Assembly (NCBI GenBank): GCA_963920765.1 | Contig: OY987243.1 | Coordinates: 15,252,001-15,316,000, forward strand | Direction: 5' to 3' | Origin: Ulota crispa | Taxonomy: Eukaryota > Streptophyta > Bryopsida > Orthotrichales > Orthotrichaceae | Length of the DNA stretch: 64,000 bases | In this document: positions 8,474 through 54,750 of the stretch, one piece after another | Layout of the letters: each line of letters begins with the position of its first letter | Numbering within the stretch: the first letter of the stretch is position 1 | Notes under the pieces: generated by a model | Told to the model about the DNA's origin: nothing | Seen by the model: only the letters and a program-made list of their open reading frames with translations | Database searches by the model: none | Made by a program: the position numbers and the translations under genes

Positions 8474-8637
8474 TTAAATCTATTCCTTTCCTATGTTATC
8501 CACAACATAGTATGCCTGTAAATCAGTAATACTCGATCCCCACTTTGTTGGTTATTCAAAATGTTTGAAGCTTGTGTGTTTTCTCATTGTCTTCAGTCTA
8601 CAGTATGGTGTTCTCTGGCACATTTTGTCTTGTTTAA

Positions 8638-18239: not shown

Positions 18240-18473
18240 TTTCATTTGACACATATATTTGGCTACGCAAACCTAATGGGTATAAAAACAAGCCCAACAA
18301 GCCCATCCAACCTATTCTCACCTGGGATAGTTTAATAACATTTCGCTCCACACCTAAACACATTTCGACATGTAGAAGTTATACAACGTATGTGCAAACG
18401 TGCAATTACAGAGGGAGGAGTGCCGATAGAGGGAGACAGAAATTTCAGGTCTACGGTACATGTCAAAGCTTAA

Positions 18474-24928: not shown

Positions 24929-25340
24929 GGGAATTGATATGTGTACCACACCCTTCCAGTTACTATACCACACCATGGGATAAATTTTAGATTTCTACCA
25001 TCAAAAAGTTGAATTTGAAAATTCTGAATTCAAATTTGGACTTAGAGACCATGGTATTGTCTAGAACCATAAAAAAAGTTGCAATTCAACAACACCCAAT
25101 GAAAAAGTTTAGTTAGGGAGAAAATTGTTGAATTTTTTTTTGTTTGTAAAAAAAGATAAGCTTTTTCATTGGGTGTTGTTGAATTGCAACCTTTTTTATG
25201 GTCCTAGACAATATCATGATCTCTAAGTCCAAATTTGAACTCAAAATTCTCAAACTCAAATTTTTGATGGTAGAAATCTAAAATTTACCCCGGGGGTGTG
25301 GTACAGTAGTTCAAAGGGTGTGGTTCACATATTAATGCCC
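24929..25340. mobile_element. Foldback element with arms of about 190 bp
   Basis: The sequence from GGGAATTGATATGTGTACCA onward is mirrored by a right half whose reverse complement starts GGGCATTAATATGTGAACCA. Both arms carry ACCACACCC, TTGGACTTAGAGA-type and CATTGGGTGTTGTTGAATTG-type blocks in inverse order around a short centre near 25140. It sits inside the CACTA element. Confidence 0.7.
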
Positions 25341-25931: not shown

Positions 25932-26163
25932 GCTGGCAGCTGCCCAAACCTTTGGGCAACTGCCCAAACCCTCGGGCAGCTACCCGGGGGTTTGGGTAGC
26001 TGCCTAGGGGCTAGGGCAGCTGTCTAAAGGTTTGGGCAGCTGCTCGTGGGCTCGGACAGCTGCTTGAGATTTGGGCAACCGCCTAGGGGCTCAGGCAGCT
26101 GCCCAGAGGTTCGGGCAGCCGCCCAGGGGCTCGGGTAGCTGCCCAAGATTCAGGCAGTTGCGC
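25932..26163. repeat. GC-rich tandem array of GGGCAGCTGCC units
   Basis: About ten variants of a unit of roughly 20-24 bp, based on the palindrome GGCAGCTGCC plus CAGGGGCTC or AAGGTTTG, form an island of very high GC in AT-rich DNA. It lies in the right subterminal part of the CACTA element, where such elements usually carry transposase-binding repeats. The frame 25827-26027 partly reads through it. Confidence 0.85.
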
Positions 26164-31794: not shown

Positions 31795-32537
31795 CCCCTA
31801 AAGGCTCCAGTAGCATTTTTTTTTGGTAATATAGCAATTTTGGGCAGCTCACTACAAATAGATGTTTCATCCTTTTCCTTTGAAAATTTACACACATGAT
31901 GTGCCCAAGGAGTAGCTTTAAGGTCCAACAACTTTCAGAATTTTTGACAACATGGTTCAAGAGTTATTGCATGACATGTTGTTTTTTTTTATAACTCTGG
32001 GCAGCTTGGGCAGCTCAGAAAACTTCTTCAAAAAATAACATTTTTTAAATTTTCATTTTGAAATTGGTTCTTTAGACTTATACACATGTGGAAAGCTTTG
32101 AATCATTCAATCTTGAGTAATGAAATGAAAGTTATGAGAACTTTTTGATTGTGGGTAGGTATGGAGTCTCTCAAAACCATACCTACCGGCAAACTAAAAA
32201 TTCTCACAACTTTCATTTCATCAATCAAGATTGAATGATTCAAAGCTTTCCACATATGTATAGGTCTAAAGAACTAAGTTCAAAATAAAAAAATAAAATA
32301 TTGAAATTTAAAAATAATAATCTAGGCTGCCCAAGTTGCCTAGAGTTAAAAAAACATCATGTCATGCAATAACTTTTGATCCGTGTTGTCAAAAGTTTTG
32401 AAAATTGTTGAACCTTAAAGCTACTCCTTGGGCACATCATGTATGAAAATTTCAAAAAAAAAAAGATGAAAAATCCGTTTGTAGTGAGCTACCCAAAATC
32501 CAATTTATACCTCATAGGGACAATGGGCTTTTAGGGA
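31795..32537. mobile_element. TTAA-flanked foldback element, almost entirely palindromic
   Basis: TTAA lies at 31791-31794 and 32538-32541. The ends are CCCCTAAAGGCTCCAGT and, reverse-complemented, TCCCTAAAAGCCCATTGTCC. Almost the whole element is an inverted repeat centred near 32170 (GGTAGGTATG / CATACCTACC at the centre). Matching blocks such as GGGCACATCATG, GCAATAACT and GCTTTCCACAT recur in mirror order over arms of about 360 bp. Internal similarity links it to 58823-59753. It has no coding capacity; a transcript would fold into a long hairpin. Confidence 0.8.
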
Positions 32538-32734: not shown

Positions 32735-32965
32735 TGGCTCAATGATGCGGGTTCATCCTAGTGTATCAAAGTAATGACCCTTCAAAACACTATTCATTCT
32801 AAGTTTAATGAGCTTTATACGTTCTCCGTGGTGAATGGTTAGTTGACTATTTACGAGGCACATTTGAAGAGCAAGGGCCACCTTTGAAGTGCAAGGTTAG
32901 AGAACTAGAATTTTGAGAGCCCTCCAAATAAAGATGTAAAGGCATCCGTAATGCACCTAGCAAGC
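32735..32965. mobile_element. Decayed relative of the 33.4-34.0 kb MITEs
   Basis: Shares the CACTATTCAT, ATGAGCTTTAT and GGGCCACCTTTGAAG-type blocks with the two elements at 33432-34050, but has no clear ends. Confidence 0.4.
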
Positions 32966-33029
32966 ATGCATAATATATTATGTCTACTTTTTTAATAGAT
33001 GATAGCATAAAAATTTATGATGTGAAGTA

Positions 33030-33345
33030 CATTTAAATTTCCCATTATAAATCTTTTGTAAAATTGGTATTAGTGTTGGTTAACTTTGATACATCCCATC
33101 AAATGTTAACTAACTTCCAATAAATTTAGAGGACGCTTCAAATTAAGCACAATAATGAAAATTTAGCCAAAAGAATGACAATTAAATTGTACCACCCTTT
33201 GGTTGATTTTTCTTTTATGGGTTTGGTTTGGAAAGGCCTCTAAACTTTTTGGAAGTTAGTTAACATTTGATGGAATATATCAAAATTAACCAATGCTCAT
33301 ACCAAGATTTTATAAAATTTTCATAACAATTTTTTTTTAAATGTC
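33030..33345. mobile_element. Foldback element, family also at 53.8-54.1 kb
   Basis: The left block (TTTGATACATCCCATCAAAT then GTTAACTAACTTCC) is mirrored at the right by GGAAGTTAGTTAAC then ATTTGATGGAATATATCAAA. The exact ends are unclear. The region 53755-54110 has the same layout with diverged sequence. Confidence 0.5.
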
Positions 33346-33431
33346 CTTCAAATTGTTAAAAAATGTGTTATAATTTATCATCATGGTATATGGGGATTGC
33401 TTGCCGAGTGCACTGCACATGCTATAAGTAA

Positions 33432-34759: not shown

Positions 34760-35238
34760 GTCGACGCTCCTTGCGAAGCTGGCTGCGAAGGAGAGCTTGA
34801 AACAATGGTCCCAGCTGCAGTGGTACCGTCGTGGTGGATCAGAGGTAGTCGGTAGCGTCGATGCTTTGTCGCTTTCTGCTTGTCAATCGATTCCTATCGA
34901 TTTCCCGGACGGGTTTCAAGATTTTTCGCGGTAAACTAACGACGCCTCAACGACCTAAGTTGGCCACTTTCTGGCGAGAGTTCGTTCCAGTTTGGAGGCT
35001 CGTCACGTTGTGTTGGCGGAGGAGGAGGTCTCGCATCCTTGAGGAAACATTTACCACCAACCATTGAAAATTTTTCGAACTGGGGACAAAGGCCGTGTTT
35101 CGGATTTTACAACACATTCGACCGGAGCTCGTTACTAAAGAAGGCAGTTTTGGTGGCCATAGGGTTGCAGTCATCGGCGCGCCTCCGAGGATAACATTCC
35201 GACAGCTTAAGGTTGTGAGAGGGCGTGGCAAATTATTC
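34760..35238 (+). promoter_or_regulatory. Diverged 5' flank of GRAS copy A (promoter and likely first UTR exon)
   Basis: GC-rich sequence between the TTAA MITE and the identical arm. It aligns in order, with gaps, to the reverse complement of 51781-52255. Anchors, measured from the arm edge (A/B), are GCGAAGCT/ACGAAGCT at about 466/470 bp, a GAGG...GTCGGT...CGTCGAT block at 398/405 bp, TTTGGAGG at 248/228 bp, and the 15-mer AGGCCGTGTTTCGGA at 149/142 bp. Upstream of a gene whose leader probably begins here, it should contain the promoter and transcription start. I could not identify a TATA box with confidence. Confidence 0.5.
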
Positions 35239-35272
35239 TCGGTACCTTTCGTTCAGCGGCGGTTGCAAAGTT

Positions 35273-36470
35273 GTAAGTCACTCCGCTTTGGTTCGGCAAG
35301 ATTTTGGATTTCCTCTTTTTCATGGTTGGAAAGGAAATGTCCCTTCCATGTGTGAGCTTGAAGCCGTGTGCTGCGGTTTTGCTGTTGCGCTCTGTGATTG
35401 TGGGGAATCGGTTGGGGTTTGGAAATTTGGCGATAAGCAACCAAGCAAAAGCCCGTGGTCGTTCTGTTTCGGTTTCGGCGTCGGCCCCTCTCGACTGCTC
35501 GACCGACGAATTTCTAGAGTGCGTCGTGGTTGGCACTGTGAGTGAGCTCGGGGTAAGGCCGGGGAAGAACGCCTTCGGGTTGCGTGCACCACCGGTGACC
35601 GCGTGCTCGGTGGCTGTATAATACGGAAGGGTTGTGTCTTCCTTGTGAGGTTGCTGCATGATGATGATGGTTGACATTTTGTCAGCGAAATTTGCAGCGG
35701 TTGTTGATTTTGTCGGATGAGCCGTGGTATCGGTTATTGGAGGTCGGTCGCAGCTTGATCTGGTCGGTGGCAACGGTGTCTTTGCGTGGCCGTCCACTTG
35801 AAACAACAAATGGCACCGGATTAAGCCCGCCACAGCCAATGTTGTCCGTTGTTCGACTTCGATAACTTGGTAGCGGTGTCACACCGGGCCAGCAGCCTCT
35901 TAGAGGCTGGTTCACGCGGAGTTGGCACGAATGCGGAGACTTGTGATAGGCGCACGGGACGAGTTGTACACGGCGTGGTTGGTGTGTGTTGTTTCGGACG
36001 TTTTTTTGCGGTAGATAGAGCAGTCGCGTGTAACCCGGGCGGATCGTGGAACCCTTGCGAAGTGAAGCTCTACCGCATAAAGACCTCTGGAGGCCGCTGG
36101 GGATGGGCCGCGACGTCGGCATTCCCCGAGTGGCCATGGCAGGGCTTGCAGGCTGGAGGCCGGGACGACGCAGAAAATGGATCGTTGCTCGGAAATGAAA
36201 TGACATGGGAGCACGGCCGTGGTCGTCGTGGCGATGGCGACGCGGCCGGATTGCGGGTACAACCGGTAGCGCGTAGGAGGGTGCCGAGGGCCTGGATGGG
36301 TTGGTTTTCTGTCGCGTAGCAGAGTGTCGTGGTCAGAAATTTGTCGATCCGGACGGGTGGAATGGTGGACATCGCCGAGCAGTACGTTTCTGGTTTGGTC
36401 GGCCCCTGGTGGATGTGTGCGTGGACGCGCCTCGGCACTGCCTAACTGTTGTTGGGTTGGTTGTTTGCAG
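35273..36470 (+). other. Likely 5'-UTR intron of GRAS copy A
   Basis: GTAAGT at 35273 is a consensus donor. At 36441-36470 a branch-point-like CTAACT, a T-rich tract and TTTGCAG form a strong acceptor. Removing 1,198 bp takes out many upstream ATGs and leaves a short leader. Leader introns are common in PAT1-branch GRAS genes. Another donor inside (for example GTAAGG near 35552) cannot be excluded. Confidence 0.5.
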
Positions 36471-36478
36471 AAGGTCAC

Positions 36479-36541
36479 ATGAGAGATTGCACGTGGATCA
36501 TACTGCACGGTTTCAAGACCCGGGCGAAGCCACATTCTTGA
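36479..36541 (+). promoter_or_regulatory. Upstream ORF of 20 codons, GRAS copy A
   Basis: In the predicted spliced leader the first ATG (36479) opens a 20-codon frame ending TGA at 36541. No further ATG occurs before the main start at 36635, 93 bases downstream. Such an arrangement often lowers translation of the main frame or makes it depend on reinitiation. It is identical in copy B. Confidence 0.4.
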
Positions 36542-36634
36542 CATCGAGCGGCCGGCTCGGTGTGCGAGAGCAGGAGGAGCGGGGGCAGCATTGAGAGTTG
36601 GAGCTTCGGCGAGACGGTTTGAGGTGGTGCAAGC

Positions 36635-38873
36635 ATGAGCGTGCAGTATCGGCCGGATCTGGGGACCATAGGGATGACGCCCGGGTACCCACCGGGGAAA
36701 GACAGGGAGTACCTGGCGGACACGGCGAACAGCCAGCAGACGCCGAGCTACTATGGCTCGCAGCAGTCGTCGTACGCGGGCGGCGTGAGGCAGGGCGCGT
36801 ACGGCATGAAGATCAGGAACCAGAGCTCGCCCATATCTCCGCTGTCGCCGCAGGACTCGTCGCAGGCGGTGTCGGAGAATGGGGCGAGGATGTCGAGAGG
36901 GTGGAGCTCGGCGTCGTACCAGAGCGAGTCGTCCTCGCACAGCGACGCGTCCGTGGAGGGGCTGTCGAATCAGGAGGAGGCGGACTGTTACTACGGACGA
37001 CAGCAGCGCGACGGCGAGCAGGCGAGGGCGTCGGCGGTGTACGTGAATGGCCCGTCGTCGGTGTCGAGGCCCGTGCCGGGTGCGGGCGCGGGCGGTCGGG
37101 GCCATGAGATGTCGAACCAGCAACAGCAGCAGCAGCAGCAGCGGCAGGGGGTGCGGCAGGTTCCGGAGGAGCTATATGCGCGGTCTCAGAGCAGCTACGC
37201 GGGGAGGAATCCGGAGCTGGCGAACGTGCTGCAGTTTCTGGAGAGCACGCTGTTGGACGACGACGAGGACGAGGAGGGCGGTGCGCTGTCGGGATCCGTG
37301 GGCGAGGGGCGCGATCCCGCGTCGGAGGGGAGCTGGGCGGACACGCTGGAGGAGCTGTTGGCCGCGGAGAACGGCAGCCCGGCGGTGGAGCACTGCAGCG
37401 TGACGTCGGCGCCGACGGTGTCGGAGTACGGGAAGCCGCACAGCACCGGGGGCTCGACGGGGTATCCCGGAAGCGCGACGCGCGGGGTAAGGCGGCGTAT
37501 TTTGTGGATGTGTGGTTGGGATGTGGTGCGTGCGTGCGTGCGTGGTAGGCTTGTCGGAGGAGGGTGGCGCCGCGCTGTTGGGAGGCATGCAGGACGGTAG
37601 TGCGGACCACCCTTGTAGGAAGAGGTGCATGTTTTGAGGCTGGAGTGGAGGCGTTGTCGTGCGCGGCAGTGACCGTGGTCGGGGTGACGGGGCTGGGTTT
37701 GCGATGCAGGCGGAGGAGGCAGCGCCGGAGAAGGTGGCGGTGGAGACGCGGAGCCGACCGGAGCAGCTGCTGGTGGCGTGTGCGGAGGCGGTGTCGAACA
37801 ACGACATGCCGGTGGCGAACGTGCTGATAGCCCAGCTGAACGCGGCGGTGTCGATATACGGCGACCCGATGCAGCGGCTGGCGGCGTACATGGTGGAGGG
37901 GCTGGTGGCGCGCGTGGCGGCGTCGGGGAGCAGCCTGTACAAGGCGCTGAGGTGCAAGGAGCCGGCGACTCGGGACCTGCTGTCGGCGATGCAGATCCTG
38001 TACGAGGTGTGCCCGTACTTCAAGTTTGGGTACATGGCGGCGAACGGCGCCATCGCGGAGGCGTTCCAGAACGAGGAGCGGGTGCACATCATCGACTTCG
38101 AGATGGCCCAGGGCACGCAGTGGACGACGCTGATCCAGGCGCTGGCGGCCCGGCCCGGGGGCCCGCCGCAGCTGCGGATCACGGGGGTGGACAACCCGCT
38201 GCCGGGGCCGAAGCCGAGCGCGGGCGTGGAGATGGTGGGGCAGCGGCTGGGGAAGCTGGCGGAGGCGGTGGGAGTGCCGTTCGTGTTTCACGGGGTGGCG
38301 AAGAAGGCGTCGGAGGTGGAGGCGTGGATGCTGCAGCGGCAGGCGGGCGAGGCGCTGGCGGTGAACTTCGCGCTGAACCTGCATCACATGCCGGACGAGA
38401 GCGTGTGCACGAGCAACCCGCGGGACCGGATGCTGCACATGATGAAGAGCCTGAGGCCGAAGGTGCTGACGCTGGTGGAGCAGGAGGCGAACACGAACAC
38501 GGCGCCCTTCTATCCGCGGTTCCTGGAGACGCTGAGCTACTACTCGGCGGTGTTCGAGTCGCTGGACATCACGCTGGCGCGGGAGAGCAAGGAGCGCGTG
38601 AACGTGGAGCAGCAGTGCCTGGCTCGCGACATCGTGAACGTGATCGCGTGCGAGGGCGCGGAGAGGGTGGAGAGGCACGAGATGACGGGCAAGTGGCGGG
38701 CGCGCATGAGGATGGCGGGGTTCCAGCCGTACCCGCTGAGCCAGACGGTGAACAGCACCATCAAGACGCTGCTGGAGTCGTACAGCGACAAGTACAGGCT
38801 GAAGGAGGAAGGCGGAGCGCTGTTCCTGGGGTGGCAGAATCGGGCGCTGATCGTGTCGTCTGCGTGGCAGTAG
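36635..38873 (+). CDS. GRAS transcription regulator, PAT1 branch, copy A (671 aa, two coding exons)
   Basis: GRAS proteins are plant nuclear regulators acting with DNA-binding partners; PAT1-branch members act in phytochrome, elicitor and wound signalling. Exon 1 (36635-37486, 284 codons) encodes a variable N-terminus with Q162-Q169, the conserved PAT1-like patch near 190-208 (RNPELANVLQFLESTLL) and an acidic run LLDDDEDEEG. A 223-bp GT-AG intron (37487-37709, phase 0) follows. Exon 2 (37710-38873, 387 codons) encodes the whole GRAS domain: LHRI from about 304 (LLVACAEAVSNND), VHIID at 409-413, LHRII with ALAVNFALNLHHMPDESV (about 499-516), PFYRE with FYPRFLET (551-558), and SAW with RVERHE (603-608) and SSAWQ at the C-terminus. 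Everything expected is present and intact. The ATG is the first after the likely leader intron, apart from a short upstream ORF. Codon third positions are nearly all G or C. Closest in pattern to PAT1/SCL5/SCL21/SCL13. It is convergent with copy B. Confidence 0.96.
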
Positions 38874-39430
38874 ACGCGACCGGCGGGCACGGCCCAGTGT
38901 ATATAGACGGAAGTATTTTGAGTTGGTGGCGTCGATGCGTAGCGACTAGCGAGTATGACTGACTGGCTGACTTAGCGAGGGCGCATTGCGCCAGAAATGT
39001 ATGGCTGTTGGGGAGCTGCCGGCGTGTGTGTGTGTGTGACTCCGCGGCTCGGAAACGAGCCGGAATGCTGCTGCATGTGTGGGCTCATTGCGTTGCTTGG
39101 TGTGGTGACCGGTGAGGTGGTGGTGAACTGGTGATTGTCATAGAACGTGCAGGCAGGTTTGCAGCGGCGGGGGTCGAGTGAGGGGGTTTTCTGGCAGGCG
39201 AGGGGTGCATGACAACATGACATGTCAGGGTCGGACGTGGGTCGGATGGATGGTTGTATTGTCAGTCGCCGGTAGCGCAGGTGGCGGTAGGAACCGTGTG
39301 GCCGCGTGACAAGTGGCTGGCACAGTTGTCGCCACGGATTTGTGTTTGTAGCTTACTACTCGCGGTGAGTCTGGTTCGGTTCTTGGCTGGGGGTCGGTTC
39401 TTGTTTGGTCAGGCGCGCTCCTGGCGTTGA
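38874..39430 (+). other. 3' region of GRAS copy A inside the arm
   Basis: Contains a short TG microsatellite (about 39026-39038) and T/G-rich stretches, but no AATAAA. An AATAAA occurs only beyond the arm, at about 39999, so the transcript may end in DNA that is not shared with copy B. Confidence 0.4.
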
Positions 39431-40417
39431 AGTTTTGTATTTTGTCTAGATTTTTAGAGGACCTTGGTTTTATTGTTAGAGTATTTTTTTGTTTTAGTGA
39501 ACACACCTTGGGATTGTTTGTTTCAAGTTTGCTTGATATCGAATCTGGATTCCAATTTGGGCTTGTTTTCCTGGATTTGGAAGGACTGTGGGTTAAGTTG
39601 CTTGAGAGCGCTCTGCTCCCTATATACGCATATGATATATGTCAGTCGTTTTGAATTTCGGAAGTCCCGTTAGCTTGCCAGTTTTTGCTTTTTTCAACCC
39701 TGCCCTTGCCAATGTACTGTTCACAAAATTGGTTATTCAGGAGTGTTTAAGGAATTGAGCACTAAGCGCAATTTGGGGTGGGCGGAATTTAGTCAGGGAA
39801 TCAGTGATTGTTTATTTCGAGTCTTAGATTTACTAAAGCAAGTTTTTCGAGTATTTTTCTTGGTATGCTCAAGCTATAGAGTTTAGTAGAATGTGAAAGG
39901 GGGGGTGCCTCTCTAGGTATTTGGGGTGTTCTTTTGTATTTTCTTGGAATTGTATATTGGAGGTTTGTGTATCTAGTGTGTATTTTATTGTTTGAAAAAT
40001 AAATAGTGAGGTTATTTCCTATTTTGCCTTAAAAACTAATTCTAAATTCATATTTTCTTCCTTTGAGTGTAGCTTCCTATAGGAAGCAAGTGTTGTACAA
40101 ATTGTGGCTATCTATGCTTGCTACAGTACTTTTCCTATCGTTAATGGTTTGTTGTGGAAGTGTTTTTTGCATTGCTCCAACCATTATGATCACATAATAA
40201 ATCTTTGGAGTGTTTTTCAAGGGTAGTACAAAAGATGTATTGGAGCGCCTTTCTTTCTGTAATTGAGACTTGGAATTTGCCTAGTGGTAGTCCTTTCCAT
40301 GTTGCAAAGCATGGGCCACTATAACAATAAGCCACGTGGTATTACGAACGCTAAGTCTATTTTGCAAAGTTATATATCAAGAACACTTGGCTGTTGGTCT
40401 CCTGTTTGTTTTTGTAC
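39431..40417. other. Spacer DNA next to the left arm, no gene seen
   Basis: Composition falls from GC-rich to AT-rich over several hundred bases. Weak possible similarity to the matching inner flank of the right arm (GCGCT...GCAGTCG or GTCAGTCG words near 39608-39650 and 47515-47541) is not enough to claim homology. An AATAAA lies near 39999. Confidence 0.45.
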
Positions 40418-41303
40418 TGTACAGTACCCCGAAGGATACATACGTACCTAAAATTTGCATAACATAAAGGATAATTGACATTTTTTTGTTGTGCATTGCA
40501 ATTTTATGATTCTTATGCAATCCCAAACAAGCACATCAAATTTTAGTTTCAGAAAACTTAAATTCCATTTATGATGAATTTTTTTGTATCAAATTCATAG
40601 TTTGTACATGATAATTGATTGAAAAACATTGGTGATGAATTTTTGAGATTTGATTGCATGGGTGTATAGGTAGCATCCATACGCACATTCTTCATGCTAA
40701 AACCAATTCCCTTAAGCAACAAAAATGTGATCTTCAAAGGATTTGGTGTGACTTGTGAAATGTCCAAAATTTTGTGAAATGGATGTTTTTGTATGATAAC
40801 CAAATTTTTGTCTTTGACTCATACATTGTGACTAAGTTTGTAGTTTTGAACATGATGTTATGTTTACTTGGTTAAAAAAAAGTTAAAAAATAAAAATAAT
40901 TATTTTACAAAATTTTGGAAATATCACAAGTCACAATAAATTTGACAAAATCCTTTGAAGATCACATTTTTGTTGCTTAAGGGAATTGTTTTTAGCATGG
41001 AGGATGAGCGTATGGATGTCACCTATGTACACATGCAATCAAATCTCAAAAATTCATCACCACTGTTTTTCAATCAATTATCATGTACAAACTATGAATT
41101 TGATACAAAAAAATTCATCAAAAATGGAATTTAAGTTTTTTGAAACTAAAATTTGATATGCTTGTTTGGGATTGCATAAGAATCACAAAATTGCAATGCA
41201 CAACAAAAAAATGTCAATTATCCTTTATGTTATGCAAGTTTTAGGCAAGTTCTTTCACTGCCAAAACATGGAGGTATGTATGTATCCTTCGGGGTATTGT
41301 ACA
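40418..41303. mobile_element. Foldback element in the spacer
   Basis: TGTACAGTACCCCGAAGGAT at the left is mirrored by ATCCTTCGGGGTATTGTACA at the right. Beyond the ends, blocks including CATAACATAAAGGATAATTG, GGGATTGCATAAGAATCA-like text and ATCTTCAAAGGATTT-like text recur inverted over arms of about 370 bp. The right arm has an extra stretch of about 30 bp near 41248-41272. It is non-coding, and no target duplication was recognised. Confidence 0.7.
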
Positions 41304-41870
41304 TTCCACTCAATGAAGCACTATGCATGCCAATGCAAGTTAGCAAGTCTCTAGTTATTGCTTCCATCTTCATGAATTATATAAATGCAGCAAACTTTTT
41401 AGAACTCGATGTGTGCTAAAAGAAGTTTTACTATTTGCTTTGGTCTTTGTAAATGTACTCACAATCACAAATGAATTGGAACACAATTGTTAACTTTCTT
41501 ATTTGTAATAGTCCAACTTTGTAACCATGACAGATTGTATCCTCCATTGGCCAAACAAAGGCAATTTCATGTTATAAAAAGAATCTTTGGATTGCATGTT
41601 GAATTGCTGTGCTTCTAAGCGGACCAAATAGCTATGGATAGTTCAAGGTGGTTATGCACTTGCAAGCACTTGCTAAGTGTGGTACGTGTCTTGTTGAATG
41701 AAGAGGCTAGAAGCGCCAAGTGTACCAAGACTCTTATTGTTTCTATTATAATTTGACCTCTCTCTTTTAGGTTTGGTTTGCATATGATTCCCATGGGATC
41801 TTGGATATGATGATAAGACTGTTATCTCTACATTGTATGTGATCTCTACAAATTGGCAACCATGCTTCAT

Positions 41871-44800
41871 CACTAGAAGAATAATGCGTCGTAAACAATT
41901 GGTTTACAACAGTTGCAAATGCTAAACAACTGTAATTGAGTCATTGTGTAGTTGTTTAGTACTTTTGTAGTTGTTGTGAACTAATTGTTTAAGACACTTT
42001 ATTCTTTTAATGCATGTTCTTCCTTTAACCCATTAAAGACCGTGGTCAATTTTGGGGGTGGGCAAGGCCTTTTTTGGGGTTTTGGGGAAAATCATACTAA
42101 CAAATAATACAAATGCCTACAGAAGATCCAACCATACCAATGGCAATGTCATGCATGGTTTATGGGTATGCATCATTTTTTGATGTTTGATCTCTTTGCA
42201 GGCAGGTTTAAATGTGTATGTATGCATATTCATAAAAATGCGGCAATCTCTACAATGGTGGGTTGTATTGTTTATGGATTGTTCTTTCTTGTTGCTAAAT
42301 AGACCACATGACAATTCTTTAGGGTGATGATGGGTTTAGGGAAAACATGGATTCTTGGGAACTCGTACAGGTACTTGATCTTTAGCGATTATGACCATCT
42401 TTCTACATTCATTCCTATATTTTGGTAGCTAGTACCTCCTGAGATTTCCCAATGTTTGGCCTAGTGGCAACTTAGGTAAACTTGATTTTTGTTCCAAACT
42501 ATGCAATTCCTAATTACCTACACACGTCCCCTTTGTCACATCTTCAAATTCCCTAACATGCTCTTCCTACCAACTAAAAAGAGTCAAGATTGACCAGAAA
42601 CTAGTTGACGGGTCATTAATGGGTTAACTACCAATCATCTCTTTCAAAGTCAGATATAAATACCCAACTCTCTTGAATCTTGCAATTGTTTACTTATGCA
42701 TGTTGATGAGTAACTTGAGCCCCATTAGTTTCTTTGAGTGGTTGTGGATGCAAAACTTTGTTTTTAGATCTTGTTGATGCAATTTACTTCTTATTAAAAT
42801 GAATGCCCTCAGCATTGCATTGACAAGCTTGAAGTTCTTCCTTTTTGTGACTACATGGTTATAAAAATGCCAATTTTTAGTTGCTAGCCGCTTATTCCTC
42901 ATGCTGGTTTAAGTTTATAAATTTATGAGTTATGATAGCTTTTCAAAATTCATCCTAAGGACTCTAAATCCGCACAATGAGTTTCATCAAGAATGCATCA
43001 TTTGCAAATAAAAGCTCAATAGTTTGCCCTTGCTCTCAAGATGTGGTTGAATTCATTTTTCCCACCTTATTCTTGCACTACAATAATTAGTCTCTTTTCC
43101 TAATTAAAAGTAATTCTACATCAGTCGTTACATCATATTGTATTTGTGCTAGCCCACACTATGAGGATGTATATCAACATGCTACCAATAACACACTTGA
43201 TTACAAACCAAAATACAACCAACAAGTGAAGTATTGCCCAACAACATAGCTTATTTGTTAAGGTTTAGATTATCACAAAATCATTGAGATGTGGGATTAA
43301 TTTGAAGCCAACTTGTAATTCCAAATATTTTGCTACTTTTCATCTACTTAAATTTAATTGTAATGAATTTTTCCATTGCAAAGTATGTGATCTATATGAC
43401 ATTCATATTATGTGTGTTTTTGTCTCTTTGATTTTTGAATCCAACCTTGCAAAATGTTTGAACATGTGCCTTTGCTCAAGTCATGTTCATCTCCAAGCCT
43501 TGCAAGTAGAGTGCCATATCATTTGCAAATGAGGTGTTTTTTAGAAAAGCCCTACTTCTTCTTGGCAGTCAGACTACTTGGATTTTGTATATTGGATCGT
43601 TAAACATATACCCCAACAAATCTAGTACCGTATTGATTAAGAATGGTGCCAATGGACATCTTTGACAAACTAATCTTGTGAGCTAAAACTAGAGTCCTAT
43701 CTCTTCATTTACTAACAAGGTTGATGAAGCGTGAGTGTATAATGTCACTAGTTGCTTAATAAAATATGCTTTGAAACCTAGTTTGATGAAATTGCTTTCA
43801 TAAATGGCTAGGTGATGCATTCACACCCTTTTTTAATATATATAAAAGTAATATTATCTAATTTTGTTCATTTTCTTTGGCATACTTTATTACTCTAGCA
43901 TTTCTTGTACAAGGACAATATTGTCCACAATGCCTAGTCCCTATACGTATCCCATTTGATTGGAGTGTATAAAGATTGGTAGCAAAGACTTGGCTTTATT
44001 CTTTATGCCAAATTTTAGCCAATACCTTATAGAACAAATTAAAGAAGGTCATGGATCAAGAGAAAGCTACAGTAGATCCTCTTTTTTTGGAATCAACATT
44101 ATGGGGCCTTTCTTGAGCTTCAACAAAAATGATCTTGCCATTGGAGCTACATGTAAGGCAAGTAGCTTGAAAAGCAGCACTTTAAGGGCTGATTTGGTTT
44201 TCCATAGGCTTTTTGAGAGAAATAAATTTTGTTTTTTATTGTCTGGTAAAGAGAAATTGATGCCAAATGTATCACAACTTTTTCATATTTTTTGAAGCAT
44301 TTTTGAATTGTTGATGAATTTAAAAGTTTTTTGTAGTACGTTGGCATCTATTTGTGATTCTAGGTCTCCCATAAACAGCTCCCTTGCAGTTTGTAAAGAG
44401 ATGAGGTGAAACCAAGGAGTATGATTGGCTCTTGCAGTAGCATACACCTTTTCTTCTATGACTAAAGAGGGTCCATTCAATGACCACCTCATATCCATTC
44501 TTGAGGTACCTATAGGTTGCTTTACAAGAAAGGGGACGCAATTTTAGCTACCTACCTTACATCTTGAGGAAATTGACCTTGAATTTGGTCAATATATTCT
44601 TAGAAGAAAAATATTGAGGCACTACCTTTGCTAGGTGTTTTTTCTTTTGCTCTGCTTTTGCAGTGCCTCTTGTAGCTAGTCTATCCTATAAGTGAGGGTT
44701 GCATTTAATTGTTACGTCATGGTTTGTGGGACTTACAAGCATACCTCATGTATAGATGTTGCAATCTTCATCATTCCTCCCCTTCTTGATATGATGCTAA

Positions 44801-45362
44801 TAGAAATGTAATTGTGGTGCCAAGCTTGTCTAGTTATGTTGTTAGCGTGGTGTATTTCACTAATAGCATAGAAATGAAGGTTTTTTGTGAGGAGCTTATA
44901 ATATTCATAGAAATTTTTATTAAAATTTTTAATGGTTTATCCAAGGTGAAGTCTTGGTTGCGCAATTTGAGTTCATGCAATGTGTATTATTCTAATATTA
45001 TTTTGCATTTTGATATCTCCATGATGACTAGTTTTTATTTAGGGTGTTTAGCTAAGAAACTCATTGATGTTTGTGTTTTTTGGAGGAGTTCTCTTTTTGC
45101 TAGAATCTCTTACTATGGAGCTACTTGCTAATGTTTGATGCTATTGTGTATATTTTGATGAAAGCAAGCTCAATCCACTTGAGTTGAAAATTTTCTTTTG
45201 TTGTATCAGCTTCAACGTTCAATAGCAGAAACAAGTGTTCCAAATAATTGTTCCATCACAATTGGTAATGTTTACAATGACTACAATAAAGTCATTTAAT
45301 AGTTATAGTGAACATTTTTACTTGTTGTAGACCAATTGTTTATACAGGCTTTTCTATTAATG
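41871..45362. mobile_element. Probable degenerate CACTA-like element filling the spacer
   Basis: The left end is CACTAGAAGAATAATG; the right end, reverse-complemented, is CATTAATAGAAAAGCC. Both are followed by TAAACAATTGGTYTACAACA and by several inverted and direct copies of AACAATTG and GTTGTTTA-like words within about 130 bp, the subterminal-repeat layout of CACTA elements. The 3-bp flanks (CAT, GTT) do not match, so it is old or the right border is off by some bases. The TTAA element 42029-42623 is nested within. No transposase is recognised. Confidence 0.5.
42029..42623. mobile_element. TTAA-flanked, piggyBac-like element in the spacer
   Basis: TTAA lies at 42025-42028 and 42624-42627. 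The ends are CCCATTAAAGACCGTGGTC and, reverse-complemented, CCCATTAATGACCCGTC. The 595-bp body is non-coding and lies inside the CACTA-like element, so it inserted later. Confidence 0.75.
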
Positions 45363-47588
45363 GTTCCAAGCTTGTACCATATGCTATATATGATTTGGGT
45401 TTTTTTCATTGCTCAATTGTATATTGCTCCAGGTTTTTCTTTCACAAATTGCAATAGTAATGAGAATTTCAAGCACATGTTTGCAATGCAAGGCCATGTA
45501 GGGTGTGTTTTGTGTCTTGGTTGGCCATGAAAATTTGTGGAGATATGCCTAACATGATTTAGAGCATGTTGGACAATCTCTTCAACACCCATATTATAGA
45601 ATGTCCACATCATGTGGTCAAAGGGATCCAAAAAATTTGGGCAAAGGTCAAAAAAAACTTTTATTCTAATTTCAAATGATCATATCTCTCAATTCATGTG
45701 GTCAATTCTCACAAAAAAATTATTATGCTTGCATAAATCTAGTGCAAGATCTTGTGGTTGGATTTGTGAAAAACATATTTTTTTGTTCTTGGGATCAAAT
45801 GACTAGAAATGACAATAAAATGTGGTGCAAGAAGCATTTTGGTTGTCTAATATTGATGAGACACCTATTTATGAAGTTGTTAATTGCCCAAAATTTATAT
45901 AATAGTTGAATTTGAAACTAGTGCAACATGTTTTCAATTGTTCTTCAAGGAAATAAGCTTAGTAGCATTGTTTGCGCCAAGTTGCTAACATCAAATTTAG
46001 CAAACAAGATGTTCACATCAATGTTTAACCTTTGAACAACCAAGCAACCCTTTGCGACCAATACAATACAGAGTACTTTTCTTGTATTTGGAGTGCATCC
46101 ACACCTTTGTTATATTTGAAATCAACAAAGAATTTAGAATATAGATCAATATTGTTCTAGTAGGGTAGTCAAGATCCAAAATTAAAACTTTTTGTTGGTA
46201 GCAAATGCCAATTATACAACAACATATGTAACATATGTATTATAGTAGCTCGATCGTTCAAGGGTTAAGCACTGCGACATTATTTAAAGATGATGGTAAT
46301 TTCTATCAGCAAAGGCAACACTCAAATATTTTGTACAACTCAAGAGCAGTTACAACTCCTACAATGTCTACATTGAACATTGGTTGAAGAACTTGAACGC
46401 CAACTTTTACAAAGGTGCTCTTCATTGAATTGTATTATCACTTGGATTACTACAATTGACGATGATGGTATTCAACTAAAAAAGTATTCAATGAGGCTAA
46501 TAGTAGGTATTGGCGATTTTTAGTGCAATTCTGGTCCTTGCCCAAGAAAACATGCTTGAATCTTGTTTGGTTCAAGTATGAACTTTTCAAAGAGTGTCTC
46601 AATCTTCAAATATGTTCAAAATGTTAAAATTAAACAGGACCATCAGAATGACCACAAAAAATACATTGCCCATCTTTGTTAGAAGGCATATCCATACCCA
46701 ACTCATAGACTTAAATTGTCAAGGTGAAAAAGTTTGAGCTAAAACACTGATGTGCTACCAAACAAGGATCAGCAGCCAAAAACAAAGAACTATTAGCCTT
46801 CACCTGCACATCCCACCAACTTTTGCAAGCTATGAGATTGCATATAAGCACTAACACAATCATGAAGACTTGTCCATACCATTGCAACTCCAGTAAAGCA
46901 AATGTGGGCATTGGTAAAACACCAGTTTCATGTAGTAACAAATACAGACGAAACCATCTTGTTCCATTCGAATCATTTGAATTCTTTGTTTGTGATCAAG
47001 TCTTACCTACTAATCTCACTGAGAAAAACAAGTGAAGCACATCAGATTTTACCTACTAATATAGTTGTGGAAAAAAAACTGAGGCACAAAAAAGTTTGTC
47101 ATTACATTTGTGTCTAGGAATTTGAAGGTGCTTAGAACGGTGACGAGGATAGTAATTTTAGAAGCAGCAGTAATAGCGATGGTGAATATAAGTGACAATC
47201 CAAGGACGACATACAACCCAACAACTGCACAAAAACGTTGAATTTGACCCAGTCTGAGCACTAAAATATTCACTTCCAAGAGAATGAATTCTCCCACATC
47301 TCCGCCGCCAAAATAATTCTAGTGACTCCGCGTGAGCATACCTCAGGATGATCTACCCCACCCATGGCCCCCCAACCACACTAAGAGTGTCGGAACCATT
47401 AGCAATGAAAACTAAGCTGCACGTCAAAAAATTTGATAAGGGTCGAAAAACATTGGCTAACATGTGGCCGCATGAGACTTGGCAAACTGAATGAGTCGAG
47501 GACCAAACGAGGGTTCGACTGCATACGTGAAAAAGCAGCGCCCACAAACCAAACGAAGAATCACTAAATGCCAACTCAAAACTCTACC
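45363..47588. other. Spacer DNA next to the right arm; one MITE
   Basis: AT-rich DNA with the TTAA MITE at 46029-46264. The last 450 bp before the arm are richer in GC. The frames seen there (for example 47353-47574, minus strand) lie downstream of GRAS copy B and match no family. Confidence 0.5.
46029..46264. mobile_element. TTAA-flanked 236-bp MITE (family also at 29568)
   Basis: TTAA lies at 46025-46028 and 46265-46268. The ends are CCTTTGAACAACCAAGC and, reverse-complemented, CCCTTGAACGATCGAGC. It is the inverse-oriented sibling of 29568-29793. Confidence 0.78.
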
Positions 47589-48145
47589 TCAACGCCAGGA
47601 GCGCGCCTGACCAAACAAGAACCGACCCCCAGCCAAGAACCGAACCAGACTCACCGCGAGTAGTAAGCTACAAACACAAATCCGTGGCGACAACTGTGCC
47701 AGCCACTTGTCACGCGGCCACACGGTTCCTACCGCCACCTGCGCTACCGGCGACTGACAATACAACCATCCATCCGACCCACGTCCGACCCTGACATGTC
47801 ATGTTGTCATGCACCCCTCGCCTGCCAGAAAACCCCCTCACTCGACCCCCGCCGCTGCAAACCTGCCTGCACGTTCTATGACAATCACCAGTTCACCACC
47901 ACCTCACCGGTCACCACACCAAGCAACGCAATGAGCCCACACATGCAGCAGCATTCCGGCTCGTTTCCGAGCCGCGGAGTCACACACACACACACGCCGG
48001 CAGCTCCCCAACAGCCATACATTTCTGGCGCAATGCGCCCTCGCTAAGTCAGCCAGTCAGTCATACTCGCTAGTCGCTACGCATCGACGCCACCAACTCA
48101 AAATACTTCCGTCTATATACACTGGGCCGTGCCCGCCGGTCGCGT

Positions 48146-50384
48146 CTACTGCCACGCAGACGACACGATCAGCGCCCGATTCTGCCACCCCAGGAACAGC
48201 GCTCCGCCTTCCTCCTTCAGCCTGTACTTGTCGCTGTACGACTCCAGCAGCGTCTTGATGGTGCTGTTCACCGTCTGGCTCAGCGGGTACGGCTGGAACC
48301 CCGCCATCCTCATGCGCGCCCGCCACTTGCCCGTCATCTCGTGCCTCTCCACCCTCTCCGCGCCCTCGCACGCGATCACGTTCACGATGTCGCGAGCCAG
48401 GCACTGCTGCTCCACGTTCACGCGCTCCTTGCTCTCCCGCGCCAGCGTGATGTCCAGCGACTCGAACACCGCCGAGTAGTAGCTCAGCGTCTCCAGGAAC
48501 CGCGGATAGAAGGGCGCCGTGTTCGTGTTCGCCTCCTGCTCCACCAGCGTCAGCACCTTCGGCCTCAGGCTCTTCATCATGTGCAGCATCCGGTCCCGCG
48601 GGTTGCTCGTGCACACGCTCTCGTCCGGCATGTGATGCAGGTTCAGCGCGAAGTTCACCGCCAGCGCCTCGCCCGCCTGCCGCTGCAGCATCCACGCCTC
48701 CACCTCCGACGCCTTCTTCGCCACCCCGTGAAACACGAACGGCACTCCCACCGCCTCCGCCAGCTTCCCCAGCCGCTGCCCCACCATCTCCACGCCCGCG
48801 CTCGGCTTCGGCCCCGGCAGCGGGTTGTCCACCCCCGTGATCCGCAGCTGCGGCGGGCCCCCGGGCCGGGCCGCCAGCGCCTGGATCAGCGTCGTCCACT
48901 GCGTGCCCTGGGCCATCTCGAAGTCGATGATGTGCACCCGCTCCTCGTTCTGGAACGCCTCCGCGATGGCGCCGTTCGCCGCCATGTACCCAAACTTGAA
49001 GTACGGGCACACCTCGTACAGGATCTGCATCGCCGACAGCAGGTCCCGAGTCGCCGGCTCCTTGCACCTCAGCGCCTTGTACAGGCTGCTCCCCGACGCC
49101 GCCACGCGCGCCACCAGCCCCTCCACCATGTACGCCGCCAGCCGCTGCATCGGGTCGCCGTATATCGACACCGCCGCGTTCAGCTGGGCTATCAGCACGT
49201 TCGCCACCGGCATGTCGTTGTTCGACACCGCCTCCGCACACGCCACCAGCAGCTGCTCCGGTCGGCTCCGCGTCTCCACCGCCACCTTCTCCGGCGCTGC
49301 CTCCTCCGCCTGCATCGCAAACCCAGCCCCGTCACCCCGACCACGGTCACTGCCGCGCACGACAACGCCTCCACTCCAGCCTCAAAACATGCACCTCTTC
49401 CTACAAGGGTGGTCCGCACTACCGTCCTGCATGCCTCCCAACAGCGCGGCGCCACCCTCCTCCGACAAGCCTACCACGCACGCACGCACGCACCACATCC
49501 CAACCACACATCCACAAAATACGCCGCCTTACCCCGCGCGTCGCGCTTCCGGGATACCCCGTCGAGCCCCCGGTGCTGTGCGGCTTCCCGTACTCCGACA
49601 CCGTCGGCGCCGACGTCACGCTGCAGTGCTCCACCGCCGGGCTGCCGTTCTCCGCGGCCAACAGCTCCTCCAGCGTGTCCGCCCAGCTCCCCTCCGACGC
49701 GGGATCGCGCCCCTCGCCCACGGATCCCGACAGCGCACCGCCCTCCTCGTCCTCGTCGTCGTCCAACAGCGTGCTCTCCAGAAACTGCAGCACGTTCGCC
49801 AGCTCCGGATTCCTCCCCGCGTAGCTGCTCTGAGACCGCGCATATAGCTCCTCCGGAACCTGCCGCACCCCCTGCCGCTGCTGCTGCTGCTGCTGTTGCT
49901 GGTTCGACATCTCATGGCCCCGACCGCCCGCGCCCGCACCCGGCACGGGCCTCGACACCGACGACGGGCCATTCACGTACACCGCCGACGCCCTCGCCTG
50001 CTCGCCGTCGCGCTGCTGTCGTCCGTAGTAACAGTCCGCCTCCTCCTGATTCGACAGCCCCTCCACGGACGCGTCGCTGTGCGAGGACGACTCGCTCTGG
50101 TACGACGCCGAGCTCCACCCTCTCGACATCCTCGCCCCATTCTCCGACACCGCCTGCGACGAGTCCTGCGGCGACAGCGGAGATATGGGCGAGCTCTGGT
50201 TCCTGATCTTCATGCCGTACGCGCCCTGCCTCACGCCGCCCGCGTACGACGACTGCTGCGAGCCATAGTAGCTCGGCGTCTGCTGGCTGTTCGCCGTGTC
50301 CGCCAGGTACTCCCTGTCTTTCCCCGGTGGGTACCCGGGCGTCATCCCTATGGTCCCCAGATCCGGCCGATACTGCACGCTCAT
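48146..50384 (-). CDS. GRAS transcription regulator, PAT1 branch, copy B (671 aa, two coding exons)
   Basis: The protein is identical to copy A. Exon 1 is 50384-49533, the phase-0 intron 49532-49310, exon 2 49309-48146. The same N-terminal polyglutamine and acidic patch and the complete LHRI-VHIID-LHRII-PFYRE-SAW domain are present, with no frameshift or stop. Copy B is read toward copy A, the two stop codons being 9.3 kb apart. Its leader intron would be 50549-51746 and its upstream ORF 50478-50540. Since sequence identity ends 34 bp before the donor, promoter, transcription start and most of the first leader exon differ from copy A. I infer two genes making one protein under separate control, unless one copy is a product of the assembly. 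Confidence 0.95.
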
Positions 50385-50477
50385 GCTTGCACCACCTCAA
50401 ACCGTCTCGCCGAAGCTCCAACTCTCAATGCTGCCCCCGCTCCTCCTGCTCTCGCACACCGAGCCGGCCGCTCGATG

Positions 50478-50540
50478 TCAAGAATGTGGCTTCGCCCGGG
50501 TCTTGAAACCGTGCAGTATGATCCACGTGCAATCTCTCAT
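50478..50540 (-). promoter_or_regulatory. Upstream ORF of 20 codons, GRAS copy B
   Basis: Mirror of the upstream ORF in copy A, with the same sequence and the same 93-base distance to the main ATG. Confidence 0.4.
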
Positions 50541-50548
50541 GTGACCTT

Positions 50549-51746
50549 CTGCAAACAACCAACCCAACAACAGTTAGGCAGTGCCGAGGCGCGTCCACGC
50601 ACACATCCACCAGGGGCCGACCAAACCAGAAACGTACTGCTCGGCGATGTCCACCATTCCACCCGTCCGGATCGACAAATTTCTGACCACGACACTCTGC
50701 TACGCGACAGAAAACCAACCCATCCAGGCCCTCGGCACCCTCCTACGCGCTACCGGTTGTACCCGCAATCCGGCCGCGTCGCCATCGCCACGACGACCAC
50801 GGCCGTGCTCCCATGTCATTTCATTTCCGAGCAACGATCCATTTTCTGCGTCGTCCCGGCCTCCAGCCTGCAAGCCCTGCCATGGCCACTCGGGGAATGC
50901 CGACGTCGCGGCCCATCCCCAGCGGCCTCCAGAGGTCTTTATGCGGTAGAGCTTCACTTCGCAAGGGTTCCACGATCCGCCCGGGTTACACGCGACTGCT
51001 CTATCTACCGCAAAAAAACGTCCGAAACAACACACACCAACCACGCCGTGTACAACTCGTCCCGTGCGCCTATCACAAGTCTCCGCATTCGTGCCAACTC
51101 CGCGTGAACCAGCCTCTAAGAGGCTGCTGGCCCGGTGTGACACCGCTACCAAGTTATCGAAGTCGAACAACGGACAACATTGGCTGTGGCGGGCTTAATC
51201 CGGTGCCATTTGTTGTTTCAAGTGGACGGCCACGCAAAGACACCGTTGCCACCGACCAGATCAAGCTGCGACCGACCTCCAATAACCGATACCACGGCTC
51301 ATCCGACAAAATCAACAACCGCTGCAAATTTCGCTGACAAAATGTCAACCATCATCATCATGCAGCAACCTCACAAGGAAGACACAACCCTTCCGTATTA
51401 TACAGCCACCGAGCACGCGGTCACCGGTGGTGCACGCAACCCGAAGGCGTTCTTCCCCGGCCTTACCCCGAGCTCACTCACAGTGCCAACCACGACGCAC
51501 TCTAGAAATTCGTCGGTCGAGCAGTCGAGAGGGGCCGACGCCGAAACCGAAACAGAACGACCACGGGCTTTTGCTTGGTTGCTTATCGCCAAATTTCCAA
51601 ACCCCAACCGATTCCCCACAATCACAGAGCGCAACAGCAAAACCGCAGCACACGGCTTCAAGCTCACACATGGAAGGGACATTTCCTTTCCAACCATGAA
51701 AAAGAGGAAATCCAAAATCTTGCCGAACCAAAGCGGAGTGACTTAC
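50549..51746 (-). other. Likely 5'-UTR intron of GRAS copy B
   Basis: Mirror of the predicted intron in copy A: donor GTAAGT at the 51746 side, CTAACT branch-like word and TTTGCAG acceptor at the 50549 side. Confidence 0.5.
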
Positions 51747-51780
51747 AACTTTGCAACCGCCGCTGAACGAAAGGTACCGA

Positions 51781-52255
51781 CGAGAAGAAAATGGTCCTTC
51801 GTCTCACTCCGCAATTTTCTCCACAACTTGATGCCGCTCAAAGTCCAATCCGCGAGGGCACCGACATTCGCAGTCCGAATACATCCAAGAAACCAAATGT
51901 GATGGTCTCCGAAACACGGCCTGTTGAGTTCGCGAGAATCACGTTGAGCGCTCCCGAGAGAAAAATGACGCCTCCAGCTCCAACAAAAGAGGGGATGAAA
52001 CCTCCAAATCAAACACAAGAAACGTTAGGAAACATACGGAAGTGCACCAAAATCGAACCGACAATATCGGCACGTTTGACTTGTCAGCGGCAACACTAAT
52101 TTTGGCGCAAGAATCTGCTGGTAACTATGAGCTCGGGAATCTGGGGTGCAGGGTCGGAGTGATCGACGTCACCGACGACTCCTCTCCCCTTCTGCTCTTA
52201 CTCAGCACGGCGATGGAAGGGAGGGCCTCACTTTCGCGACGAGCTTCGTCTGGGG
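51781..52255 (-). promoter_or_regulatory. Diverged 5' flank of GRAS copy B (promoter and likely first UTR exon)
   Basis: GC-rich sequence upstream of copy B, aligning in order but with many differences to 34760-35238. The best anchor is the 15-mer AGGCCGTGTTTCGGA (minus strand, 51922-51908); others are TTTGGAGG at 52008 and a GAGG...CGTCGAT block at 52185-52162. It should hold the promoter of copy B. Confidence 0.5.
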
Positions 52256-53543: not shown

Positions 53544-53754
53544 TTCTTGTTATTGGTTGAACACTATTCTACTTTGTTGCATAGGTAGGAGAAATCACAA
53601 CTAAACACAAGAAACTAAAGTCACAGTGATTCCCCGAGATGAAGAGCTAGAGATTAAGTGGAGATGCTCTTTGAGGTTCCTCACTCCACTTGACAAGTAG
53701 GTTTAGTATATCAAGCCATATCTTCTATTAGTCAATAGATTATAATATAACTTA

Positions 53755-54110
53755 TTATAATTTGAAGAGTGTGAAATTGCTTTTTGTGAAAACGTAGTAA
53801 AAATATGGTTTGGATATGGTTGATCTAAAAACATCCCGTCAAATGGTAGCCAACATCCAAAAACTTAGAGGCCTTTTTTAATTAAGTATAAATAAGGAAA
53901 AGTCAACAAAGGGGATGAAAATTGTATAGACACTTTTGTTGAGTTTTCTTTGTTTGGCCTTGATTTGGAGAGGACTCTTTTTTTTTTGGAAATTAGTTAG
54001 CATTTGAGGGATGCATTGAGAGTTTGTCAATATTCAAATCCAAACTATATCACGTTTTCACAACAACGTTTTCAGTGCCCTTTCAAATTTCAATCATAAT
54101 TTATGTAGGT
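53755..54110. mobile_element. Foldback element, family also at 33.0-33.3 kb
   Basis: CATCCCGTCAAATGGTAGCC and AACTTAGAGGCC at the left face GGAAATTAGTTAGCATTTGA and GGGATGCATTGA at the right in inverse order. The ends are unclear. Confidence 0.45.
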
Positions 54111-54750
54111 TATTCATTATTATTTATTAAAAGAATGGCCTTGCTATTTTGGGGTTGTTTTTCAAGTGGATAAAGGACGCCTTTAGGGCCAACTTCCATG
54201 CTCCATTGGAATTGGCCACAATGATGAGAGTTTTTCAAAGTTCAATTCTTGTGCTTCTTACAAACAAAGTATTTGTTAGAACATCATATTTAACTTCTAA
54301 TTTTGTTATTTTCCAACATCCTTTCATGCACGGGTGTATATCTAGTTTGTCATTTTCTTACTCTTTTTTTTTTGGGCCACCATAAACTTGACCTTTAGTA
54401 GGTTAAGTTTTCAAATTGAAATGAAGTGATTTATGAAGGAAGTAAATCTTAATTGTATTTAGCTCTTACTTGGTATTATGAGCTTTTTAGGGCGCCTTTT
54501 TGTAGTCCATAATAATCCTCCCAATTTTTTCCTAATTTTTGTTGATTTTAAACTATTCCCTTTCTTCTATAAGCCATTAAATTTCAATTACCTTCAAATT
54601 TTTAAATTGGATTGTAAGTTTTTTATTCACAATTTGCACAATTTACATTCAAATGGTACATCACTTCAAGGTTTTGCAATTACAATAACGCAAATCTTAA
54701 TGTACACAAAAGAATCTATACATCTAGGATGATGAATCTATCTAGCAAGT
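54111..54750. other. Intergenic, no gene seen
   Basis: AT-rich DNA. Open frames at 54149-54385 and 54478-54732 show no family signature. Confidence 0.5.

What the first reader, a model, noticed from the sequence alone, without database searches (positions are those of the whole stretch)
35239..51780. A 4,192-bp inverted repeat with apparently identical arms duplicates a whole GRAS gene
Both arms hold the complete PAT1-type gene with leader intron, coding intron and 3' region, convergent across an 8,158-bp spacer. The coordinate sum is constant at 87019, so there is no indel, and every mirrored frame gives the same translation. Even introns and UTRs appear identical, so selection on the protein cannot explain it; the copies are either very young or kept alike. 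Plant palindromes with a transcription-factor gene in each arm are uncommon.
Basis: seen in the sequence. Interest (0 to 1): 0.8.

Follow-up and report, generated by a model that had tools for sequence, protein, structure and literature searches.

The report
Perfect mirrored copies of plant gene
A plant chromosome carries two letter-for-letter identical, mirror-image copies of a gene-regulator gene, and faint likeness in the DNA just outside them hints that this may be an old gene pair whose bodies were recently copied over each other, though a young duplication is not ruled out.

Summary
Arms 35239-39430 (+) and 47589-51780 (-) are 4,192 bp, 100% identical, without indels, around an 8,158-bp spacer. 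Each holds a complete GRAS domain (Pfam PF03514); the modelled gene is intact, 671 aa. This signal is patchy (2 of 10 outer slices), blastn missed it, and inner flanks show little or nothing. I favour an old inverted gene pair whose upstream regions diverged while a 4.2-kb core was recently homogenised by arm-to-arm copying (gene conversion). Rivals: a young inverted duplication; an assembly or polishing effect. Perfect gene-bearing inverted repeats are known in plants (soybean I locus), so this is a new member of a known kind. No genome, relative or reads were available.

The parts
35239..39430 (+). Left arm of the inverted repeat, 4,192 bp, identical to the right arm
47589..51780 (-). Right arm, reverse complement of the left arm, 4,192 bp
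39431..47588 (.). Spacer, 8,158 bp, GC 0.347, CpG o/e 0.30; its 10 longest ORFs (of 99 of 40 aa or more) gave no Pfam match above a cut-off
   Evidence: two matches below cut-off, taken as chance
36635..37486 (+). Coding exon 1 of left GRAS gene (284 codons)
   Evidence: model
37487..37709 (+). Predicted coding intron, 223 bp, GTAAG donor / GCAG acceptor
   Evidence: not confirmed by transcripts
37710..38873 (+). Coding exon 2 with the GRAS domain (stop included); GC3 0.96 in the part examined
49533..50384 (-). Coding exon 1 of right GRAS gene (mirror of left)
   Evidence: mirror identity; model
48146..49309 (-). Coding exon 2 of right GRAS gene with full GRAS domain
   Evidence: mirror of the model
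34839..35238 (+). Left outer flank: residual mirrored similarity to the right outer flank, CpG o/e 1.25
51781..52180 (-). Right outer flank: residual mirrored similarity to the left outer flank, CpG o/e 1.23
35090..35104 (+). 15-bp exact block shared by the flanks (left copy), first base 149 bp outside the arm
51908..51922 (-). 15-bp exact block shared by the flanks (right copy), first base 142 bp outside the arm
40447..41245 (.). Inverted repeat inside the spacer, 301-bp arms 94.7% identical, transposon-like
   Evidence: transposon identity inferred

Best explanation
Two GRAS genes lie tail to tail as an inverted pair. I think the pair is older than the identity of its arms suggests: the regions upstream of the two genes have drifted apart to faint similarity, while a 4.2-kb core (5' region, both exons, intron and 3' region) was recently made identical by copying one arm onto the other (interlocus gene conversion, in one long tract or repeatedly). 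The likely consequence is two genes making the same protein under two different upstream regions. Shown: identity, exact limits, intact reading frames, faint flank similarity in register, CpG-rich flanks. Inferred: age of the pair, conversion as the copying process, the regulatory consequence.
For: No difference in 4,192 bp, non-coding parts included. Outer 400-bp flanks align in mirrored register with z 3.96 (local) and 4.32 (global) against block-wise dinucleotide shuffles; 82 control segments against the left flank reach at most 2.61 and 2.47, and 76 against the right flank at most 2.31 and 3.07 (the control pieces overlap one another). A 15-bp exact block lies 149 and 142 bp outside the arms; the longest in-register match in 300 shuffles was 11, the longest anywhere 14; with up to 3 mismatches the block occurs only at these two places in the window. 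CpG o/e is 1.25 and 1.23 in the two 400-bp flanks against 0.26-0.35 in distant flanks and spacer, so neither arm looks freshly dropped into ordinary DNA of this region.
Against: The flank signal is confined to 2 of 10 outer 100-bp slices (z 4.54 and 2.69; the other 8 below 1.9), and 400-800 bp out it is within shuffles (3-31 of 100 reach it); blastn with 7-base words lists no match within the first 1.8 kb outside both arms at E up to 1; six-frame translated comparison is within 20 shuffles; over 700-1,500 bp some local scores fall within shuffles, e.g. 25 of 200 and 14 of 100. Inner flanks show no similarity over 200-400 bp, only a weak first slice (z 2.93, 3 of 300). A hairpin-type element lies at nearly mirrored distances on both sides (1.84-2.32 and 1.93-2.42 kb out), but its copies match slightly better on the same strand than mirrored (score 246 against 227), which speaks for separate insertions rather than an old longer palindrome. 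The change from identical to barely alike is abrupt, and 4.2 kb seems long to me for one conversion tract (recalled). No outgroup could be compared.
Confidence: 0.48

Rival explanations
1. A young inverted segmental duplication: a 4,192-bp piece with the whole gene was copied once, in inverted orientation, to a place about 8 kb away (for example by template switching during repair), too recently for any mutation to fix.
For: Perfect identity and four sharp junctions; inner flanks unrelated over 200-400 bp. With recalled mutation rates of 4e-9 to 1.5e-8 per site and year, 0 of 4,192 differences bounds the age at roughly 24,000-89,000 years.
Against: Does not predict mirrored similarity beyond the outer edges nor CpG-rich DNA outside both arms. 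No target-site duplication or transposon ends were recognised by eye at the junctions printed (no formal search).
Confidence: 0.34
2. Assembly or polishing effect: one arm is a false copy, or two similar but not identical genes were written as the same consensus by polishing with reads that fit both.
For: Perfect identity over non-coding parts is what a consensus error would also give; no reads or second assembly were available (no genome held).
Against: No N in the window and four different flanks at sharp junctions, unlike a duplicated haplotype piece, which would be expected to share a flank (inference). Polishing alone needs arms already very alike.
Confidence: 0.14
3. The inverted repeat acts as a silencing locus: read-through of the convergent genes gives hairpin or double-stranded RNA, like the soybean I locus.
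For: Convergent orientation, perfect arms, spacer of the same order as the soybean case (5.87 kb there; 8.16 kb here).
Against: The arms have CpG o/e 1.15, not what long-standing cytosine methylation leaves; both reading frames are intact; transcription would have to cross 8 kb. No small-RNA data.
Confidence: 0.06

Closest known systems
Soybean I locus (CHS1-3-4 inverted clusters), PMC3804491, abstract and passages seen
   Same: Perfect inverted repeats of whole plant genes around a spacer of several kb
   Different: Three enzyme genes per 10.91-kb arm, reported to make siRNAs; here one GRAS gene per 4.2-kb arm and no evidence of silencing
Palindromes of the willow (Salix purpurea) W chromosome, PMC7023750, abstract part and passages seen
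   Same: Gene-bearing inverted arms in a plant with reported gene conversion, one gene a type-A response regulator, spacer of about 3 kb
   Different: 20-kb arms above 99% identity on average, several genes, female-specific and compared with a second species; chromosome here unknown, arms 100% over 4.2 kb
Primate X-chromosome palindromes, PMC8981503, start of abstract seen in a search listing
   Same: Arm identity kept by gene conversion, described there as GC-biased; these arms are G+C-rich too (0.63 against about 0.34)
   Different: Mammalian sex chromosomes and large palindromes; here G+C richness may simply be a property of the gene
Tandemly arrayed genes in the moss Physcomitrella, PMC3045890, passages seen
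   Same: Neighbouring plant gene copies described as highly similar, with concerted evolution by gene conversion suggested
   Different: General remark on tandem arrays; no link of this window to that species was tested

Membership tests
GRAS transcription regulators (Pfam PF03514) | Complete GRAS domain | tested here: met
   482.3 bits, cut-off 27, profile positions 2-374 of 374, both arms; 15 distinct PDB sequences at E up to 0.001 for the left copy, with names of DELLA, SCARECROW, SHORT-ROOT, NSP and similar proteins
PAT1 subfamily of GRAS | Closer to PAT1 proteins than to other GRAS subfamilies in a tree | not tested
   No PAT1 reference sequence was fetched; motif likeness is recalled only
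Gene-bearing palindrome (inverted repeat with spacer) | Two long inverted arms of very high identity with genes in them | tested here: met
Palindrome maintained by gene conversion | Arms alike within a species yet different from a related species at the same sites | not testable with these tools
   No plant genome was at hand; one search was answered that no genome is held for the window
Palindrome maintained by gene conversion | Signs that the pair is older than the arm identity suggests | tested here: inconclusive
   Outer flanks z about 4, above controls, but only 2 of 10 slices, no blastn hit near the arms, and the hairpin elements further out fit separate insertions better
Silencing inverted repeat (soybean I type) | Small RNAs from the arms or loss of target expression | not testable with these tools
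   No RNA data; CpG o/e 1.15 in the arms is indirect evidence against long-term methylation
Transposon-carried gene copy | Terminal repeats or target-site duplication at arm ends | tested here: inconclusive
   None recognised by eye in the junctions printed; no formal search was run

The most novel reading that the evidence does not exclude
A long-lived plant inverted gene pair in which repeated arm-to-arm conversion keeps one GRAS protein identical in two genes while their upstream regions are free to diverge: one protein, two promoters, with the conversion limits marking the boundary between the locked and the free parts, and with conversion perhaps also driving the high G+C of the arms.
Probability: 0.25. 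Interest if true: 0.62.

Novelty: new member of a known kind. Interest (0 to 1): 0.4.

Why it matters
If the pair is old, the locus is a compact natural test of how far gene conversion reaches in plants: the tract limits are exact to the base, the copied part holds a complete regulator gene and the uncopied part holds the upstream DNA. Comparing a few related individuals would show whether conversion is one event or recurrent and whether identical proteins are being kept under different control. If it is young, it is a clean example of a fresh inverted gene duplication.

Tried and rejected
Homology of the inner flanks: within shuffles over 200-400 bp, only the first of 6 slices weakly above. 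A third GRAS copy or remnant: tblastn of both protein parts against the window with the arms masked gave 6 chance-level matches, best E 1.8. Coding homology of the outer flanks: six-frame comparison within 20 shuffles.

A longer old palindrome: blastn of the 8 kb outside each arm shows a hairpin-type element on both sides at nearly mirrored distances. Followed up: about 450 bp, A+T-rich, CpG-poor, 64-66% alike, the only two places in the window at E up to 1e-6. Each copy is self-complementary, so the orientation test is weak, but the same-strand match is the better one; not used as support.

Pfam matches below their cut-offs, taken as chance: ARL17 in ORF 34940-35191 (E 0.00037, 21.2 of 27 bits), Cys_box, PHD_P300 and ICE2, Toxin_TOLIP and Ectoine_synth in spacer ORFs. 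RNA genes: no Rfam family at its gathering score and no tRNA (ARAGORN used the bacterial code). Protein domains elsewhere: of 635 ORFs of 40 aa or more not wholly inside the right arm or one satellite, 27 were scanned (28 distinct ORFs in 30 entries, one of them the right GRAS copy), so absence of domains elsewhere is not shown. Species: not identified. Literature: nine searches of the held open library; among the rows listed no title or abstract start described a GRAS inverted repeat, and (GRAS, PAT1, inverted repeat, gene conversion together) found 0 papers; several searches listed only part of their papers (e.g. 8 of 68).
Full report
What is there. The window is 64,000 bp without N. Comparing every base with its mirror at coordinate sum 87019 shows no difference from 35239 to 39430, so the arms are 4,192 bp at 100% identity, and the spacer 39431-47588 is 8,158 bp. 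blastn extends the alignment by three columns with one mismatch at 39431. The next five repeats by score are clearly less alike, for example 87-93% for a direct pair at 8.6-9.5 and 18.5-19.4 kb and 94.7% for a 301-bp inverted pair inside the spacer.

The gene. ORF 37638-38873 and its mirror 48146-49381 match the GRAS profile from position 2 to 374 of 374 at 482.3 bits, and the left copy matches 15 distinct PDB sequences of GRAS-type names. Splicing a GTAAG donor at 37487 to an acceptor ending at 37709 gives an uninterrupted 671-aa protein starting at 36635 and ending at 38873; eight other acceptors listed there keep the frame, so the exact junction is a prediction. GC3 in exon 2 is 0.96. The genes point towards each other.

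What lies outside the arms. I compared the flanks in the mirrored orientation. Over 400 bp the outer flanks score 3.96 (local) and 4.32 (global) standard deviations above block-wise dinucleotide shuffles; 82 control segments compared with the left flank (76 overlapping arm pieces on both strands, 4 pieces further right, the wrong strand and the reversed right flank) reach at most 2.61 and 2.47, and 76 arm pieces compared with the right flank at most 2.31 and 3.07. Under 4 scoring schemes, local and global, with base shuffles inside 50-bp blocks, 0-1 of 200 shuffles reach the observed value at 200 bp, 0-10 of 200 at 400 bp and 0-25 of 200 at 700 bp; the stretch 400-800 bp out alone is within shuffles (3-31 of 100). 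With whole-flank dinucleotide shuffles it is 1 and 0 of 100 at 400 bp and 14 and 0 of 100 at 1,500 bp for the two scoring schemes. The core is a 15-bp exact block starting 149 and 142 bp outside the arms; in 300 shuffles of 600-bp flanks the longest in-register match was 11 and the longest anywhere 14, and 203 real 600-bp entries reach at most 14 (one overlapping entry dropped). With up to 3 mismatches it occurs only at these two places in the window.

Limits of that signal. It is patchy: slices 100-200 and 300-400 bp out have z 4.54 and 2.69, the other 8 of 10 slices lie below 1.9. blastn listed nothing with both partners in the first 1.8 kb at E up to 1, and translated comparison is within 20 shuffles, so if the flanks are related, what is left are short conserved blocks, perhaps regulatory. 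The global alignment pairs 357 positions at 63% identity and the local one 312 at 74%, figures that gapped alignment inflates. The inner flanks are within shuffles over 200-400 bp, with one weak first slice of 6 (z 2.93).

Further out. A hairpin-type element of about 450 bp lies 1.84-2.32 kb outside the left arm and 1.93-2.42 kb outside the right. Nearly mirrored distances would suit an old, longer palindrome, but the two copies match better on the same strand (score 246) than mirrored (227), and each is self-complementary, so I read them as two insertions of one repeat family.

Composition. The arms have GC 0.63 and CpG o/e 1.15; the outer 400-bp flanks have GC 0.50 and CpG o/e 1.25 (left) and 1.23 (right); distant flanks and spacer have GC 0.33-0.35 and CpG o/e 0.26-0.35. 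In 200-bp steps, CpG o/e stays at 0.9 or more to about 800 bp outside the left arm and 600 bp outside the right; on the inner sides it is 1.01 then 0.63 on the right and 0.46 then 0.78 on the left, lower beyond. CpG depletion is the usual trace of cytosine methylation (established knowledge), so both upstream regions look like long-unmethylated gene-type DNA. A copy newly placed at random in this neighbourhood would not be expected to have that on its outer side, though insertion into open chromatin could explain it.

Explanation. Young duplication explains the identity and junctions simply; with recalled mutation rates the bound is roughly 24,000-89,000 years. It does not explain the outer flanks. 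An old inverted pair whose core was recently overwritten explains both, and predicts that upstream regions differ while the proteins are the same. I put this at 0.48, young duplication at 0.34, an assembly or polishing effect at 0.14 and a silencing locus as the main role at 0.06; these are overlapping judgements, not computed.

Comparison. Perfect inverted repeats of whole plant genes are known: the soybean I locus has two 10.91-kb perfect inverted CHS clusters 5.87 kb apart and makes siRNAs (PMC3804491, abstract and passages). The willow W chromosome has gene-bearing palindromes above 99% alike on average with reported gene conversion (PMC7023750, abstract part and passages). Concerted evolution of neighbouring copies by conversion has been suggested in a moss (PMC3045890, passages), and GC-biased conversion is described for primate X palindromes (PMC8981503, start of abstract in a listing). 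So this is a new member of a known kind; the regulator gene and the possibly divergent promoters are what would make it notable.

Noticed in passing
32919-33398 and 53711-54200: Self-complementary hairpin-type element, one copy on each side of the inverted repeat at nearly mirrored distances, 64-66% alike, better on the same strand than mirrored.
   Followed up: partly
19917-20294 (-): ORF with part of a TFIIB zinc ribbon (PF08271, 35.0 bits, cut-off 29, profile 18-43 of 43); probably a gene fragment.
   Followed up: partly
8634-9473 and 18470-19351 (+): Direct repeat pair, 93% and 87% identical in two pieces, about 9.8 kb apart, placed like the long terminal repeats of an old retrotransposon; four ORFs in that stretch gave no Pfam match.
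   Followed up: partly
23201-24051: Degenerate satellite of a 10-bp unit TTTGAGAATC, about 83 copies.
   Followed up: no
25935-26150: Tandem repeat of 20/40/79-bp units rich in GGCAGCTGCCC, partly self-complementary (78% over 108 bp).
   Followed up: no
31837-32499 and 24929-25340: Two self-complementary stretches (about 82-83% between strands), hairpin-type elements.
   Followed up: no
36635-38873: Strong compositional contrast: GRAS gene with GC3 0.96 in exon 2 in a background of about 34% G+C.
   Followed up: partly
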